In this document: positions 34,024 through 42,318 of the stretch, in pieces
Layout of the letters: each line of letters begins with the position of its first letter
Position numbering within the stretch: the stretch's first letter is position 1
Source: an uncultured Gammaproteobacteria bacterium
GTDB taxonomy: Bacteria > Pseudomonadota > Gammaproteobacteria > Pseudomonadales > Pseudohongiellaceae
Direction: 5' to 3'
DNA: 47,196 nucleotides
NCBI GenBank assembly: GCA_903887045.1
Contig: CAISOD010000166.1
Coordinates: 1 to 47,196 of the forward strand
Translations under genes and position numbers: made by a program
The notes under the pieces: generated by a model
Told to the model about the DNA's origin: nothing
Databases searched by the model: none
The model's input: only the letters and a program-made list of their open reading frames with translations

Positions 34024-35610
34024 ATGAATTCAGCCTCCCCGCTCCAGCTCGACAACCATTTCGTACGCCATCTGCCGGCCGATCCGGAACAGCGCAATAT
34101 CCGCCGCCAGGTCAGCAAAGCCTGTTACTCCCGCGTGCAGCCGCTGCAGTTTCCGCGCGCCACCTTGCTGGGCTGGTCGCAGCCACTGGCAGCACAGCTG
34201 GGCTTGAGCCCCCTGCAGTTGGGTGAAGCACGGTTCGCGCAGATTTTTTCGGGTAGTGAATTACTCAGCGGCTCCGAGCCCTTTGCCCAGTGTTATGGCG
34301 GCCACCAGTTCGGCAACTGGGCCGGCCAGCTCGGCGATGGCCGCGCCATCAACCTCGGTGAGATGCGTGATGTGAACGGTCAACACCAAATGTTGCAACT
34401 GAAAGGCGCCGGCCCCACACCCTATTCCCGCACCGCCGATGGCCTTGCCGTGCTGCGCTCGTCCTTGCGCGAATATCTCTGCAGCGAAGCCATGCATCAT
34501 CTCGGCATCGCCACTACCCGCGCGCTCAGTCTGGTGGCCACCGGCGAAACCGTGGTGCGCGACATGTTCTACGACGGCAACCCCAAAGCCGAACCCGGCG
34601 CTGTGGTGTGCCGGGTGGCACCCTCGTTCCTGCGCTTCGGTTCCTACGAAATTTTCAGCGCCCGCAACGATATCGACAGCCTGCGCACGCTGGCCAACTA
34701 CACCATCGCCCGCGATTTTCCGGAGCTGCCCAATGCCACCACGCCTGATGCCGATACCTACACCGCCTGGTTCGACACCATCTGCCAGCGCACCGCGCGC
34801 TTGATCGTCGACTGGATGCGGGTGGGCTTTGTGCACGGCGTGATGAACACCGACAACATGTCGATCCTCGGTCTCACCATCGACTACGGCCCCTACGGCT
34901 GGCTCGAACCGCACGATCCGACATGGACACCCAACACCACCGACGCCCAAGGCCGCCGCTACCGTTTCGGCCAACAGCCGCAGATTGCCATGTGGAATCT
35001 GGTGCAGCTGGCGAATGCGCTGTACCCGCTGATCAACGAAGTGAAACCTCTGGAGGACGCGCTCGACAGCTATCGCAATACCTACGAGCGTGAATGGCTG
35101 GCGATGATGCGACGCAAGCTCGGCCTGGCGCAGGCCGAACCGGACGACAAACCGTTGGTGGAAGCACTACTGCAAAGTTTCTCGCTGACAGAAACCGACT
35201 ACACACTGTACTTCCGCGCGCTGGCAAGGTTCGACGCCAGCACGGAAGTGACCGGCCTGCCCATTGCGCTGCGCTCCACCTGGTACGACGAGCAACCCGG
35301 CACCAAGGCCGAACAGGCAGCCACCGAATGGCTGCAACGCTACCGCGAACGCCTGTTGGCAGAACACTCAGACCCAAGCGCCCGCGCAAACCTGATGAAC
35401 GCCACCAACCCGCTTTACGTGTTGCGCAACTGGCTGGCCCAGCAGGCAATCGACGATGCCGAACAAGGCAAGCTCGACAAACTGCGCGAACTGGAACAAA
35501 TGATCCAACAGCCCTATACCGCCCAAGCCGGCAAAGACCACCTCGCCGAGAAGCGACCCGAATGGGCCCGCCAACGCGCCGGCTGCTCCATGCTCAGCTG
35601 CAGCTCCTGA
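34024..35610 (+). CDS. selO: SelO/YdiU-family protein adenylyltransferase
   Basis: CYGGHQFGNWAGQLGDGRAINLGE; LQLKGAGPTPYSRTADGLAVLRSSLREYLCSEAM; FVHGVMNTDNMSILGLTIDYGPYGW; C-terminal CSMLSCSS. Confidence 0.95.
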   Translation: MNSASPLQLDNHFVRHLPADPEQRNIRRQVSKACYSRVQPLQFPRATLLGWSQPLAAQLGLSPLQLGEARFAQIFSGSELLSGSEPFAQCYGGHQFGNWAGQLGDGRAINLGEMRDVNGQHQMLQLKGAGPTPYSRTADGLAVLRSSLREYLCSEAMHHLGIATTRALSLVATGETVVRDMFYDGNPKAEPGAVVCRVAPSFLRFGSYEIFSARNDIDSLRTLANYTIARDFPELPNATTPDADTYTAWFDTICQRTARLIVDWMRVGFVHGVMNTDNMSILGLTIDYGPYGWLEPHDPTWTPNTTDAQGRRYRFGQQPQIAMWNLVQLANALYPLINEVKPLEDALDSYRNTYEREWLAMMRRKLGLAQAEPDDKPLVEALLQSFSLTETDYTLYFRALARFDASTEVTGLPIALRSTWYDEQPGTKAEQAATEWLQRYRERLLAEHSDPSARANLMNATNPLYVLRNWLAQQAIDDAEQGKLDKLRELEQMIQQPYTAQAGKDHLAEKRPEWARQRAGCSMLSCSS

Positions 35611-35622
35611 ACCCAACCGTAC

Positions 35623-35642
35623 GGGCACGGCACGCCGTGCCC
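35623..35642. repeat. Perfect 9-bp inverted repeat after selO
   Basis: GGGCACGGC AC GCCGTGCCC, no T-tract. Confidence 0.8.
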
Positions 35643-35722
35643 CCACCCGCCGCAAATAAACTGGCAAATTCCCCCGCCTTCACTATGTTGTGATTACACC
35701 ACCCATCGCAAAAGGACTTGCC

Positions 35723-36154: not shown

Positions 36155-36230
36155 GCCCCGGTGGCTCAGTGGATAGCGCGGCCCCCTCCTAAGGGGCAGG
36201 TCGCAGGTTCGATTCCTGCCCGGGGCACCA
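36155..36230 (+). tRNA. tRNA-Arg (anticodon CCT)
   Basis: GCCCCGGTGGCTCAGTGGATAGCGCGGCCCCCTCCTAAGGGGCAGGTCGCAGGTTCGATTCCTGCCCGGGGCACCA, full cloverleaf with encoded CCA. Confidence 0.95.
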
Positions 36231-36231
36231 A
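36215..36231 (+). repeat. Left copy of 17-bp att-like direct repeat (tRNA-Arg 3' end)
   Basis: CCTGCCCGGGGCACCAA, identical to 41224-41240. Confidence 0.85.
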
Positions 36232-36278
36232 ATTCAGTTCCAAAATTCTGTTACACACCCGTGGTTGGCATACCCTGC

Positions 36279-38408
36279 TCACGAGTCGGCTGCGAAGGCC
36301 TGATGGGTGGCAGCACGCAACTTGGGATCGAGCCCAAGCATCTGCTCCAGCACTAGCGCCAAAGCTACAGGATTAAGCTGCAACTCGGGCCTGCCGCGCT
36401 CGTGCAACCACAACAGGTAGCACGCCCATGCTCGCAGCAGTCCACCCACCTGGTCCTCCGCCTCCTTGATACTGATCTGCAAAGAGTAGCCCAGCGACAG
36501 CGCCGTGACAGACTGCAGTCCCTGGCGGAAGTTCACGCCTTGCCTCGCTGCCGCATTGAAGGCAGCAACTATGTCCCGGCTGCTCTCGACACTACTTTCC
36601 CCAACGCTCCCCCGGTCAATCGACATAAACACATCAGGGGAATTAGATGAAACCTGTTGGCGCCGACTGAACAGGGGCGTCAACTCGTTCAGGGTGTTAC
36701 CCACCCCACCCCACCCAGCAGCCAACATCGGGCGAACCTTATGCAGCGCCGGCATGCCGTTGGTCTTGTCGGCTTCGGCACGCTCGATGACGAGCAGCAA
36801 GTTTGTGTGCTCCGTGACCAGTTGATAGCGTCCAGCCAGGGCGCTGGCAGTAGCTACATTTTCGGTAAGGCTGATCTCCCGAGCAGCAACCAAACGCGCC
36901 ACCAAGTCATCCTCACGCCAGCACAGGCCGGGCTGGGTTGCGGCTTCATCCCTCAGTTGCAGCGTGGGAGCTTGCGAAGGACGCGCAGGCAAACGCAGGA
37001 ACATGTGGATGGTTTCATCCGGCACCAGCCGGTTGGGCAAGGGGCTGGACCACAGGGCTGGCTCTTGCAGGCGCAACTGGGCTTGTACCGGCACAGCGAG
37101 CCGTATGCGACTCAACAAACGCTGCACAGCATCAGCCATGTTCTCGTTCGGGGCAGCAAATTCGCAGGCACCCCCGGTGGTTTCGGCCAACTCGCGCAAG
37201 AGACTTTCGGCAGGCGCGCTACCAACGCCCAAAGCGTAAATGCGGTGCCCACTGCGGCGAGCCGAGTCCACAATGTGCTGCGCGTCCCACACCTCACCGT
37301 CAGTGATCAATAGAACGTCAGCTTCCTCTGATTCCATACGCAAGGCGAAGCTGTCTTCAAGCGCCAGGGCCAGCTCCGTGCCTCCCATCGTGGCATCGGT
37401 AGCATCAATCGCGTGCAGGAGCGCGACTACGTTCTGTGCGGTAGCGTCGACAGCACCCACTACACGTTGGCAACGATTACCGAACTTGCTGTAGGACACC
37501 TGGTCCTGCGGCTGCAGGAGGTTCGCCAGCGGACGCAATGCACTCCGCGCCTGGGCAATGCTGTTACCAGCCATGGAGCCTGAACAATCCACCAGAATCT
37601 TCAGGCGCAGGCTGGCCCGCACCGCCGGCGGCAGCCTGGGACAGTAACTGGCGATCAGCGCCACCCTACCCTCGCCACTGCGCTCGTCTGGCCCGGCAAT
37701 GGCAAAGGATTGGCCCTGCAGATTCTCCAACAGCAGCACGAAGTCACGGTCGAGCCAGGCTTTGGCACCTTGCAGCGTCACCCGCACCGCCTCGCCTTCC
37801 CGCTGCTGGGCAATGGCATGCGAGGGGCTGGCGATGCGCGCCTGCGCCACCGGCCCCAGTAGAGTGATGGCAAAGTCGAAGGCATGCTCAGCGAACAGGT
37901 CCGGCGTGGTGACTTGATGCGGCGCCAGGCTACCCTGCTTCACCGCATCACCGTAGCGCGGCGCAATCGTAGTGGGCACCACCAGGCGGATGCGGCCCTG
38001 CTCGAAGGCCAGCAACTGCGCATAGCTCAGCTCAATCACTGCCTCCTCGCCCGGCTTGAGGCTGCCCAGCATGGCGCTGAATACGCCGTTCTGGGCCTTC
38101 TCCACCATGATGGGCGCATCTCCCTGCTCCACCGCATCTTCATAGCGCTCACGTGCCTCGGCCCGGGCCAGCACCTGGCCCTGCAGGCGCTTGCCTCCCA
38201 GTTCGGCGTCCAGCCGCGTCAACACCGCGCCCCAGGCCAGCGGAAAGGTATAGACCACCTCCAGGTTCTGACTACAGTCGTTGCGGAACACCTGCCGCAG
38301 CGTCAGCGACAGCAGCAAGCCTTCCAGCGTGCCGTGTGCACTCACAGAGCGCAGCATCGGGACAACATCGGAGCGGGTACTGCTGAGCGTGGCGTACTCA
38401 AGTTGCAT
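36279..38408 (-). CDS. VIT domain + von Willebrand factor A domain protein
   Basis: N-terminal VIT-like SAHGTLEGLLLSLTLRQVFRNDCSQNLEVVYTFPL; vWA MIDAS LKILVDCSGSMAGNSIAQARSAL, ATMGGTELALAL, LLITDGEVWD. Confidence 0.88.
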   Translation of the reverse strand: MQLEYATLSSTRSDVVPMLRSVSAHGTLEGLLLSLTLRQVFRNDCSQNLEVVYTFPLAWGAVLTRLDAELGGKRLQGQVLARAEARERYEDAVEQGDAPIMVEKAQNGVFSAMLGSLKPGEEAVIELSYAQLLAFEQGRIRLVVPTTIAPRYGDAVKQGSLAPHQVTTPDLFAEHAFDFAITLLGPVAQARIASPSHAIAQQREGEAVRVTLQGAKAWLDRDFVLLLENLQGQSFAIAGPDERSGEGRVALIASYCPRLPPAVRASLRLKILVDCSGSMAGNSIAQARSALRPLANLLQPQDQVSYSKFGNRCQRVVGAVDATAQNVVALLHAIDATDATMGGTELALALEDSFALRMESEEADVLLITDGEVWDAQHIVDSARRSGHRIYALGVGSAPAESLLRELAETTGGACEFAAPNENMADAVQRLLSRIRLAVPVQAQLRLQEPALWSSPLPNRLVPDETIHMFLRLPARPSQAPTLQLRDEAATQPGLCWREDDLVARLVAAREISLTENVATASALAGRYQLVTEHTNLLLVIERAEADKTNGMPALHKVRPMLAAGWGGVGNTLNELTPLFSRRQQVSSNSPDVFMSIDRGSVGESSVESSRDIVAAFNAAARQGVNFRQGLQSVTALSLGYSLQISIKEAEDQVGGLLRAWACYLLWLHERGRPELQLNPVALALVLEQMLGLDPKLRAATHQAFAADS

Positions 38409-38811
38409 CGTCTTCTCCCTTGATATCCTGCCAGGCGGCAAGGACGCGTTTGGCCAATGCGCGGATCTGTTCAGGGGTAGCGCCCGCCTGCTCGGGCGAC
38501 AGCTGCAGCTCGATACCCGGCGCAATCAGGATGTGGCTGCGCACCTCCACCGAGCCGAAGGCCTGGACGCGCGGGGGCACCACAGGCGGCTCCCCAGCGA
38601 GCACTTCCCGAATGCGTTCAAGCGAAATGCCCGCCTCGCTCAGCTGCTTGATGCGCAGCAAAGTGTCGAGGTGGGACTGCAAGTAGTAGGCCCCGCGCTT
38701 CTCCCCCTCTGGCCGCGGCAGCAGGCCGAGCTGGATGTAATAGCGCACGGTGCGGCGCGGGATGGCTGCGAGGGTAGCGAGTTCGTCGAGGGAGAAGGTC
38801 TTGATCGTCAT
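38398..38811 (-). CDS. MerR-family transcriptional regulator
   Basis: TFSLDELATLAAIPRRTVRYYIQLGLLPRPEGEKRGAYYLQSHLDTLLRIKQLSEAGISLERIREVL. Confidence 0.9.
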   Translation of the reverse strand: MTIKTFSLDELATLAAIPRRTVRYYIQLGLLPRPEGEKRGAYYLQSHLDTLLRIKQLSEAGISLERIREVLAGEPPVVPPRVQAFGSVEVRSHILIAPGIELQLSPEQAGATPEQIRALAKRVLAAWQDIKGEDDAT

Positions 38812-38816
38812 GGGAG

Positions 38817-38852
38817 ACACTTTATGACAGTGGTACTGTCTCATACAAGTGT
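38817..38852 (-). promoter_or_regulatory. Candidate MerR-type operator/promoter with nested dyads
   Basis: Minus strand ACACTTGTATGAGACAGTACCACTGTCATAAAGTGT: inner GACAGT-ACC-ACTGTC, outer ACACTT/AAGTGT. Confidence 0.55.
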
Positions 38853-38920
38853 TTTATATTGCGACCAGTCGCAACCACTCCTGCCGGTAATTCGCAGAAA
38901 CACTCAAACGGACACTTTCA

Positions 38921-39613
38921 ATGAAAATGCAGAAGATTGCAGGACTCTCCCGCCGCAGATTCCTTCAGGGCCTGGTCGCAGTGGGAATCCCGCTGAAGCT
39001 GGACACACCACTGGCCGATCAAAGCGATGCGCAGATCGACGAGTTGTGGGAATCCGTCTCCAGCGACCCCATCGTGTTCGAGGTGGACGATCGAACCATT
39101 TATCTCCCAGGGGTTGAATACCCGAGCGTCTATCGCGATGTGGTGGACATTCGGTCAAGCTACTCGAGTCATCAAGAGCTGCTGGACGACATGGACGAGT
39201 GGGAAGGCCTGTACCAGCATTTCGAGTTTATGTTTCTGGATGCCAAAGACGCCGAAGATGATGAAGATGCTGAATATCTTGACGAGTGTTCTTTGCCTGA
39301 ATTGCAAGACTACGAGAGCATGAGCTCCTGGATTCAGACTCTGCCGCTGGAGCGGATCAATGCAGAAGTACAGCAATGGCTCGAGCAAGAATTGCCGCTT
39401 GGCTACGAGGTTCCCCTGCACTTGGGCCCGATGGGTGAGGCCTATGGCTTCTTCCAAGGACTTGAGTACCCAACCCTCAAAGCACTTGGCGTCGTGGTCG
39501 TGGAAGGCGAGCATCCCGGTTCCAGCTACTATGCGGCGGAGTTGAGGAGGCCGGTAGAGGAAGCGAACAAGTCGGCTGAGCTGCTGGGAATTCCGATTCG
39601 CTTCCACACCTAG
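38921..39613 (+). CDS. Hypothetical acidic protein with twin-arginine signal
   Basis: SRRRFLQGLVAVGIPLKL near N-terminus; acidic run DAKDAEDDEDAEYLDE; no recognised family. Confidence 0.65.
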   Translation: MKMQKIAGLSRRRFLQGLVAVGIPLKLDTPLADQSDAQIDELWESVSSDPIVFEVDDRTIYLPGVEYPSVYRDVVDIRSSYSSHQELLDDMDEWEGLYQHFEFMFLDAKDAEDDEDAEYLDECSLPELQDYESMSSWIQTLPLERINAEVQQWLEQELPLGYEVPLHLGPMGEAYGFFQGLEYPTLKALGVVVVEGEHPGSSYYAAELRRPVEEANKSAELLGIPIRFHT

Positions 39614-39768
39614 AATTATCGGGATCAGCCGACGTCCCCTCGTCATCAAAAAGATACGTATTCTGCAATCAAGGCTGCATTGCTCCCTAGGGTCTTGCTA
39701 AGCAGACAAGGGGAATGTACTCGGCATGTAAAACCAATCAAACAGCGAGCAGCAGGCCCACCAAGAAC

Positions 39769-40560
39769 ATGATTATCACAGCCCCCACCAAGGCCCTCCT
39801 GCTATTCGCAGCTATCATCGCCACCTATGCAACCCTGGTGGAACCTGTGTGGTTGGACATCGACGAGTACTCGCTCAGCAGCAATAACGCCACTACACCA
39901 ATCACCATACTGCACCTGTCCGACCTGCATCTGCGCCACTTCGGTCGCCGCGAGCAGGCAGTAATAGCGGCTGTAACAGCAGCAAGACCTGACATCGTGG
40001 TGCTGAGCGGGGATGTGATCGACCAGAGCAGCGCCTTACCCGTGCTTGAGCAGTTCCTGGCGGCGCTGCCAGTAACACGCACCGTGGCTGTGCTTGGCAA
40101 CTGGGAACACTGGGCGGGTGTGGATCTGGCAGCGCTGGCCGCAACCTATACCGAACACAAGGCAACACTCCTGGTAAATGCCAATCTTGCCTTCAACGTA
40201 CGCGGGCGCAGCGTGCAGATTACCGGGCTGGACGACAACACCGCGGGCCAACCAGCACTACCACCACCAAGCGAATCGCTGCCAGCAGAGCTGACCATCT
40301 TGGCCCAACACTCACCGGACTGGTTCACTGGGCAAGATCTCGGCACCCAGGGTTACACGCTATGCCTTGCCGGGCACACCCACGGTGGCCAGGTAGCGCT
40401 GTTTGGCCGCCCTCTGTGGCGCCCGCAAGGAAGCGGCCGCTTCATCGCCGGCACATATCAACTGGCGGGCTGCCTGCTGCATGTGTCGCGCGGTGTTGGT
40501 ACGTCCATTCTGCCGATCCGCTTCGGTGCCCGACCGCAGATCACCATGTTTACACTCTGA
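39769..40560 (+). CDS. Membrane-anchored calcineurin-like metallophosphoesterase
   Basis: ILHLSDLHLRHFGRREQ, DIVVLSGDVID, AVLGNWEHW, LCLAGHTHGGQVALFG; start at MIITAP preferred (longer ORF from 39715). Confidence 0.88.
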   Translation: MIITAPTKALLLFAAIIATYATLVEPVWLDIDEYSLSSNNATTPITILHLSDLHLRHFGRREQAVIAAVTAARPDIVVLSGDVIDQSSALPVLEQFLAALPVTRTVAVLGNWEHWAGVDLAALAATYTEHKATLLVNANLAFNVRGRSVQITGLDDNTAGQPALPPPSESLPAELTILAQHSPDWFTGQDLGTQGYTLCLAGHTHGGQVALFGRPLWRPQGSGRFIAGTYQLAGCLLHVSRGVGTSILPIRFGARPQITMFTL

Positions 40561-40599
40561 TACCATCGCCGGCATGAATAACTTTGGGATTGTTACGAC

Positions 40600-40779
40600 A
40601 TGTCACATCAAGAGAATCAGTCAACTGCATCGATAAAATCCGAGATTACCCGTTTGCAGCAGCGGCTGGATGATCTCTTGGGTGAGTCTCCGCGAATGGA
40701 TGATGAGGTGAATGCAGTGGAGCGAGATTTGCGGGCGTTGATATCTCTTTTTGAGGCAGTCAAAGTTAACGCGCAGTGA
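40600..40779 (+). CDS. Small predicted coiled-coil protein (59 aa, below ORF-track cutoff)
   Basis: MSHQENQSTASIKSEITRLQQRLDDLLGESPRMDDEVNAVERDLRALISLFEAVKVNAQ. Confidence 0.4.
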   Translation: MSHQENQSTASIKSEITRLQQRLDDLLGESPRMDDEVNAVERDLRALISLFEAVKVNAQ

Positions 40780-40922
40780 TACCAGACTTGGTCACAAGAT
40801 GTCTGAGCCCCGGGGTAGCATCGACGGCAGATATGGGCCAAGTTTGAGGAGCAGTAGTTTATGAAGCTAACAGACGAGTTTGAAATCTCCGTGATTCACT
40901 TCCCAAGAAGGCTTCGGGCGTA

Positions 40923-41024
40923 TTAACACCAGCAGCCTATGCAAAACAGCTGGCTATGAACGCACTCAACAATCTGTCGAACGGCTTCTTCCTTAAACTC
41001 GGGGGTAAAACGAGGGGTGCTCAT
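40923..41024 (-). mobile_element. Remnant of an IS3-like OrfA transposase
   Basis: MSTPRFTPEFKEEAVRQIVE followed by unrelated codons and stop; upstream AGGAGG. Confidence 0.6.
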
Positions 41025-41223
41025 GGGACTTCCTCCTATGCAAATATCATAGTCGGGAAGTGTCTACCGCACTCGGGGAGGTCCACCTAGTATCAGACCG
41101 GCATCCCTCGACAGCGCACCAATTCGCGTAACAATCGCGTACCAAGCGCGCCGATGTAGCGTTACACTGAGTGTTAATCGTTGATTCCACCAGCGCAGCA
41201 ACGAGGAAATTATGGAGGCGGCG

Positions 41224-41240
41224 CCTGCCCGGGGCACCAA
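41224..41240 (+). repeat. Right copy of 17-bp att-like direct repeat
   Basis: CCTGCCCGGGGCACCAA, identical to tRNA-Arg 3' end plus one base. Confidence 0.85.
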
Positions 41241-41379: not shown

Positions 41380-42318
41380 ATGAGCGCTACCATCCTTCCC
41401 TTTGTTCGTCCCCCTCACGATGCCCTGATGGCGGTTCGCAGCCTGGTGCCGGATACGGCGCTGACTGCCGAACTGCTGGGCACCGAGCGCAGCAGTCATG
41501 CCGTGCAGGTGACTGCCGACGGGCTGCTGTTGACGGTGGGTTATTCGGTGCTGGAGGCTGCGGAAGTGTGGCTGACCAATCGCAAGGGTCAGACCACTGA
41601 AGCCATCGTGCTGGCGCAGGACTACGACAGTGGCATTGCGCTGCTGAAACCGCTGACACCGATCGGCCTGCATCATCTTGCCACTGCCGGCATTGGCGAG
41701 CTGCAGCCTGGCAGCGATCTGCACATCGTTGCGGCCAACGACAAGCAAATCCACAAGGTTGGCCTGCACGCGCTCGACGAATTTGCCGGCCGCTGGGAAT
41801 ACCTGCTGGATACTGCCCTCTACACGCAGCCGCTGTATGAGCGCTGGTCAGGGGCTGCGCTGCTCAATGACGACGGCGCGCTGGTTGGTATCGGCTCGCT
41901 GGCATTGGGTCTGCGTTCGCCCACGGGCCAAATGGAACCCGGCAACCTCTTCATACCGGTCGAGCTGGTGATGCCGCATCTTGAACACATGAAGCTGCAC
42001 GGCCAGCGGCCCGGCAAAATGCGGCCCTGGCTGGGTGCGATGGTGGAGGAATACAACCGCGAGGTGCACGTGGTGGGCATCTACCACGATGCGCCCGCTG
42101 CCAAAGCCGGGCTGCGGCCGGGCGACATCATTCTCTCGGTGGATCAGAAGCCGGTGCACAGCATGGCGTCGTTCTTCCGTACGGTGTGGCAACACGGCCC
42201 GGCGGGCTCGCCACTGCCGCTCACCCTGAGCGACGGCACCGACAAGCGTGAGGTTGTGCTCGCCACCACCGACCGTGACAGCTTTTTCATGCAGTACGCT
42301 GCCAACCTGATCAACTGA
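41380..42318 (+). CDS. HtrA/S1C trypsin-like protein with PDZ domain, probably catalytically degenerate
   Basis: HAVQVTADGLLLTVGYSVLEAAEV, DSGIALLKP, RWSGAALLNDDGALVGIGS, then PDZ APAAKAGLRPGDIILSVDQKPV. Confidence 0.75.
   Translation: MSATILPFVRPPHDALMAVRSLVPDTALTAELLGTERSSHAVQVTADGLLLTVGYSVLEAAEVWLTNRKGQTTEAIVLAQDYDSGIALLKPLTPIGLHHLATAGIGELQPGSDLHIVAANDKQIHKVGLHALDEFAGRWEYLLDTALYTQPLYERWSGAALLNDDGALVGIGSLALGLRSPTGQMEPGNLFIPVELVMPHLEHMKLHGQRPGKMRPWLGAMVEEYNREVHVVGIYHDAPAAKAGLRPGDIILSVDQKPVHSMASFFRTVWQHGPAGSPLPLTLSDGTDKREVVLATTDRDSFFMQYAANLIN

What the first reader, a model, noticed from the sequence alone, without database searches (positions are those of the whole stretch)
36155..41240. 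A roughly 5-kb genomic islet inserted at tRNA-Arg(CCT), bounded by a 17-bp direct repeat and without an integrase
The last 16 bases of tRNA-Arg plus one downstream base (CCTGCCCGGGGCACCAA, 36215-36231) recur exactly at 41224-41240. This is the classic attL/attR pattern of tyrosine-recombinase integration at a tRNA 3' end. Between the copies (5009 bp repeat to repeat) are a VIT/vWA protein, a MerR regulator, a Tat-signal hypothetical, a metallophosphoesterase, a small coiled-coil ORF and an IS3 remnant. I see no integrase gene, so the element is either decayed or mobilised in trans. The cargo combination is unusual and is the best candidate here for an undescribed accessory system.
Basis: partly seen in the sequence, partly recalled or inferred. 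Interest (0 to 1): 0.7.

Follow-up and report, generated by a model that had tools for sequence, protein, structure and literature searches.

The report
Integrase-less islet at tRNA-Arg(CCT)
A 5-kb stretch of foreign genes sits at the end of an arginine tRNA gene, flanked by a copied piece of that tRNA as an integrating element would leave it; no integrase remains, so it looks like an ordinary immobile leftover, although it carries a widespread and apparently unstudied two-gene operon.

Summary
tRNA-Arg(CCT) spans 36155-36230, and its last 16 bases plus one recur exactly at 41224-41240. These are the only two copies (up to one mismatch) in the 3.39-Mb assembly. The segment between them behaves as foreign: of three cargo genes searched in sister species, two have no match and VIT/vWA has only distant ones. 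The flanks (SelO before the tRNA; HtrA-like and xth after) are syntenic in sister species, where other genes fill the gap. Two sister species (G001, G006) carry their own displaced tRNA tails, so this tRNA end is a recurrent integration site. The repeat has the geometry of the 16-nt core of prophage KplE1 in E. coli argW. No integrase or recognisable remnant is present, and only one tyrosine recombinase was found in the genome, a solitary type seen family-wide. Best reading: a decayed, now immobile islet. The cargo is not one system. It holds a MerR-VIT/vWA operon (MerR adjacent in 78 of 82 related loci, mostly Burkholderiales, often with an operator-like dyad), plus an orphan Tat-signal protein, a YaeI-like phosphoesterase, a 59-aa ORF and IS3 scraps. 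No conspecific empty site could be sought.

The parts
34024..35610 (+). SelO/YdiU gene, conserved left flank
   Evidence: PF02696 and NF000658; next to tRNA-Arg in several sister species
36155..36230 (+). tRNA-Arg(CCT), intact, CCA encoded; the integration target
   Evidence: ARAGORN
36215..36231 (+). Left copy of the 17-bp direct repeat (attL-type)
   Evidence: exact match, only two copies in the genome
36279..38408 (-). VIT/vWA protein, 709 aa; second gene of the MerR operon; vWA metal-binding residues conserved
   Evidence: PF08487, PF00092; alignment A1
38398..38811 (-). MerR-type regulator; its end overlaps the VIT start by 11 bp
   Evidence: PF13411; 78% identity to the Aquabacterium plasmid copy; start codon checked
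38826..38840 (.). Operator-like dyad GACAGT-N3-ACTGTC in the merR promoter region
   Evidence: at most 2 mismatches upstream of 25 of 68 related operons, shuffled mean 1.1
38921..39613 (+). Orphan protein of 230 aa with a twin-arginine motif (SRRRFL)
   Evidence: no Pfam or NCBIfam hit; no relative found
39769..40560 (+). Metallophosphoesterase, YaeI-like, N-terminal hydrophobic stretch; open frame begins at 39715
   Evidence: PF00149; YaeI model 111 bits, below its cut-off of 188
40600..40779 (+). 59-aa ORF, coiled-coil-like by eye
   Evidence: open frame; no Pfam family
40814..40868 (+). IS3-type OrfB C-terminus-like scrap
   Evidence: 80% DNA match to the insert end in G001; short protein match
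40956..41024 (-). Possible IS3-type OrfA N-terminus scrap (weak)
   Evidence: 43% over 23 aa, E = 0.008
41224..41240 (+). Right copy of the 17-bp direct repeat (attR-type, displaced tRNA tail)
41380..42318 (+). HtrA-like protease/PDZ gene, conserved right flank
   Evidence: PF13180; same place before xth in sister species

Best explanation
The segment 36215-41240 is the remnant of a small integrative element or genomic islet that a tyrosine recombinase inserted into the 3' end of tRNA-Arg(CCT). Crossover in the last bases of the tRNA kept the tRNA whole at the left end and left the displaced 17-bp tail at the right end. Shown here: the repeat, the intact tRNA, the conserved flanks, the absence of cargo from close relatives, displaced tails of the same tRNA in two sister species, and the absence of an integrase. 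Inferred: that a tyrosine recombinase did it, that its gene was lost, and that the islet is now immobile. Of the cargo, the MerR-VIT/vWA pair is a compact operon acquired as a unit; MerR probably represses its own promoter at the dyad and, on an unknown signal, lets the cell make a cytosolic, metal-binding VIT/vWA scaffold protein (inferred). The other cargo genes look like independent passengers.
For: Unique 17-bp repeat ending at CCA+1, the same geometry as the 16-nt core of KplE1 in E. coli argW (PMC2951348). Flanks syntenic with different content in between in G004, G008 and G010. Displaced tRNA tails in G001 (C50, directly before the gene that follows the tRNA in G008) and G006 (C4, beside SelO). 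Tat protein and phosphoesterase without a match, and VIT/vWA with only distant ones, in the genus. No integrase in the islet and one weak tyrosine recombinase in the genome.
Against: No conspecific empty site was available. No integrase is found beside this tRNA in any sister genome, so the recombinase type is inferred. GC and GC3 of the main cargo genes are close to those of the host. The sister displaced tails lie on other contigs than their tRNAs, so those inserts were not read through.
Confidence: 0.75

Rival explanations
1. The displaced tail is the scar of an older integration, and the present cargo arrived piecemeal later, by IS activity or homologous recombination at a variable spot. 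The repeats bracket the cargo but did not bring it.
For: Three unrelated transcription units of differing GC, IS3 scraps at the right end, and gene content that varies at this place in many sister species without any second repeat.
Against: The repeat is still exact over 17 bp, and no intermediate states were seen.
Confidence: 0.18
2. The islet is still mobile, moved in trans by a recombinase from elsewhere in the cell.
For: Both repeat copies are intact.
Against: Only one weak tyrosine recombinase was found in the assembly, of a solitary type seen across the family. The assembly is in 313 contigs, so a missed plasmid is possible.
Confidence: 0.06
3. An ordinary inherited region with a chance or unrelated duplication of the tRNA tail.
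For: Composition of the main genes is close to the host.
Against: Cargo is missing or only distantly matched in the genus; a duplicate ending at CCA+1 is typical of att sites, and two sister species show the same kind of duplicate.
Confidence: 0.01

Closest known systems
KplE1 (CPS-53) defective prophage in argW, E. coli K-12 (PMC2951348)
   Same: Small remnant bounded by a duplicated core covering the 3' end of a tRNA-Arg gene through CCA plus one base (16 nt there, 17 here)
   Different: KplE1 keeps its integrase IntS and can be excised; the present islet has no integrase and no phage genes
MerR-VIT/vWA operon of Aquabacterium olei plasmid pTB101
   Same: Same gene order, same 11-bp overlap, 61% (VIT/vWA) and 78% (MerR) identity
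   Different: Lies on a plasmid with other neighbours; no tRNA islet was seen there
Tycheposons (described as cargo-carrying elements at tRNA genes, PMC10872708)
   Same: Cargo next to a tRNA gene
   Different: Those described carry a tyrosine recombinase gene; none here

Membership tests
tRNA-integrated genomic islet (tyrosine-recombinase type) | Direct repeat of the tRNA 3' end at both borders | tested here: met
tRNA-integrated genomic islet (tyrosine-recombinase type) | Content absent from the same place in close relatives | tested here: met
   (sister species; no conspecific genome)
tRNA-integrated genomic islet (tyrosine-recombinase type) | Exact empty site in the same species | not testable with these tools
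   one genome per species is held
tRNA-integrated genomic islet (tyrosine-recombinase type) | Integrase gene (present in active members, may be lost in remnants) | tested here: not met
   hence filed as a remnant, not as an active element
MerR-VIT/vWA operon | MerR gene directly upstream of, and on the same strand as, a VIT/vWA gene | tested here: met
MerR-VIT/vWA operon | Dyad ACAGT-N3-ACTGT upstream of merR (common, not universal) | tested here: met
Marine proteobacterial sortase target protein (TIGR03788) | Score above the curated cut-off | tested here: not met
   188 bits against a cut-off of 551.65
Known anti-phage defence system (PADLOC) | Full component set of a described system | tested here: not met
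   only a helix-turn-helix match of MerR to mad1 and a weak phosphoesterase match

The most novel reading that the evidence does not exclude
The MerR-VIT/vWA operon is an unrecognised, horizontally moving stress or conflict module: a MerR repressor senses a signal at a conserved ACAGT-N3-ACTGT operator and releases a cytosolic VIT/vWA protein related to the VIT-vWA core of PARP4. Here it rides on a tRNA islet.
Probability: 0.2. Interest if true: 0.6.

Novelty: new member of a known kind. Interest (0 to 1): 0.33.

Why it matters
It documents tRNA-Arg(CCT) as a recurrent insertion site in this genus and shows an islet that survives as cargo between two repeats after its integrase has gone. It also points to an operon of unknown function, with MerR adjacent in 78 of 82 related loci, whose only steady partner is its own regulator and which can now be tested.

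Tried and rejected
The genome-contig scan with the single VIT sequence found nothing; with a three-sequence alignment it found 272 relatives, 80 kept. The viral-contig scan with the Tat protein found nothing. The viral-contig scan with the 17-mer found only phage-borne tRNA-Arg(TCT) genes, not att sites. The plasmid search for the Tat protein and the phage search for VIT found nothing. The AlphaFold model of the Tat protein from a single sequence is poor (pLDDT 44), so no fold search was made. The tail-like match in G003 is a complete tRNA-Arg(ACG) and was dropped as an att copy. No paper on a MerR-VIT/vWA operon was found in the library. By eye, an integrase start seemed to follow the tRNA in G009, but the contig ends there and the PF13356 search found none in G009.

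Full report
Observation. ARAGORN finds tRNA-Arg(CCT) at 36155-36230. The 17-mer CCTGCCCGGGGCACCAA, the last 16 bases of the tRNA plus one, is at 36215-36231 and 41224-41240 and nowhere else in the window at up to 2 mismatches. It is nowhere else in the 313-contig, 3.39-Mb assembly at up to 1 mismatch.

Surroundings and relatives. SelO, a small ORF and tRNA-Arg on the left, and the HtrA-like gene and xth on the right, form the conserved frame. In sister species G004 the tRNA-to-HtrA gap is 0.94 kb and holds one gene that looks like a SOUL heme-binding protein. In G008 it holds a PQQ-type and a SOUL-like gene, and in G010 it is 6.7 kb with other genes (the names SOUL and PQQ are my reading of the sequences, not profile hits). 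In another genus of the family (G011, G018) the tRNA lies inverted between SelO and HtrA with short gaps. The Tat-signal protein has no relative in a search of 137 genomes of the family or of 392 genomes sampled from the order, apart from this genome (the two sets overlap). The phosphoesterase has none in the genus, and VIT/vWA has only distant matches there.

Recurrent use of the site. One search gave stray matches to the tRNA tail in three sister genomes. Two are displaced tails without a complete tRNA. In G001 (C50:901-940) the tail directly precedes the same PQQ-type gene that directly follows the tRNA in G008, so G008 shows the unfilled and G001 the filled arrangement. In G006 (C4:3870-3902) the tail lies beside SelO, next to what reads like a BrnT/BrnA toxin-antitoxin pair (my reading). 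The third, in G003, is a complete tRNA-Arg(ACG) and was dropped. Integrases with an Arm-DNA-binding domain occur in six of eleven genomes of the genus, and several sit at tmRNA, tRNA-Leu(CAG) or tRNA-Phe. None was found at tRNA-Arg(CCT). The short flanks do not tell cleanly which side of the islet is the element's own: G001's left junction shares 28 bp with G008's chromosomal flank, and the other similarities are marginal. This is left unexplained.

Mobility. The only PF00589 match in the genome is weak and belongs to a solitary 421-aa recombinase next to an S41-protease-like gene. Matches in proteins of similar length occur throughout the family. No integrase trace lies in the islet. The simplest reading is a fossil. 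The closest published parallel is KplE1 in E. coli argW, whose 16-nt core CTGCAGGGGACACCAT covers the same stretch of a tRNA-Arg gene (PMC2951348).

Cargo. The MerR-VIT/vWA pair is the part with clear relatives: an Aquabacterium olei plasmid (61% and 78% identity, same 11-bp overlap), a Massilia plasmid and 80 genomic loci, mostly Burkholderiales. In 78 of 82 loci a MerR gene stands directly upstream on the same strand; L061 appears to be the same sequence as the Aquabacterium plasmid, so the count holds one near-duplicate. No other neighbour is steady. The vWA metal-binding residues are invariant in the three aligned proteins, and the profile matches the VIT-vWA region of PARP4 among solved structures. 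A dyad GACAGT-N3-ACTGTC at 38826-38840 lies in the merR promoter region. A version with at most two mismatches (spacers 1-5) occurs upstream of 25 of 68 operons, against a mean of 1.1 (maximum 4) in mononucleotide-shuffled sequences and 4 of 201 random segments. The motif was chosen from these sequences and the operons are related, so the contrast overstates independence. That MerR is a repressor here is inference.

Verdict. It is an ordinary kind of thing in a decayed state. The idea that the cargo is one accessory system is not supported.

Noticed in passing
G000:C86:22304-22903 (locus L141) and the whole family: None of 65 family genomes at 95% completeness or better, including some in one contig, has a XerD match over the TIGR02225 cut-off (the model is strict: only 4 of 14 control genomes pass it, though all 14 match). 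Many carry a solitary tyrosine recombinase of about 400-440 aa with a weak match. This family may have replaced XerC/XerD with a single recombinase.
   Followed up: partly
L024 (G005:C120), 0.1-4 kb after the tRNA-Arg(CCT): Genes that look by eye like PIN-domain and HTH toxin-antitoxin components and a DUF1016-type nuclease follow the same tRNA in G005.
   Followed up: no
L021 and L160 (G001), L026 (G008): The 28 bp after the tRNA in G001 are identical to the flank in G008, although G001's own copy of that flank, beside its displaced tail, has diverged. This suggests import from a G008-like donor.
   Followed up: partly
window 35617-35646: A GC-rich palindromic stretch after SelO recurs in tandem-like spacing in G004:C99 and once in G000:C116, like a REP-type repeat.
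   Followed up: no
MerR-VIT loci (L062-L140): A WYL-like regulator lies within 6 kb of the operon in 9 loci and a NERD-nuclease-like gene in 7 (named by eye); distances and strands vary.
   Followed up: no
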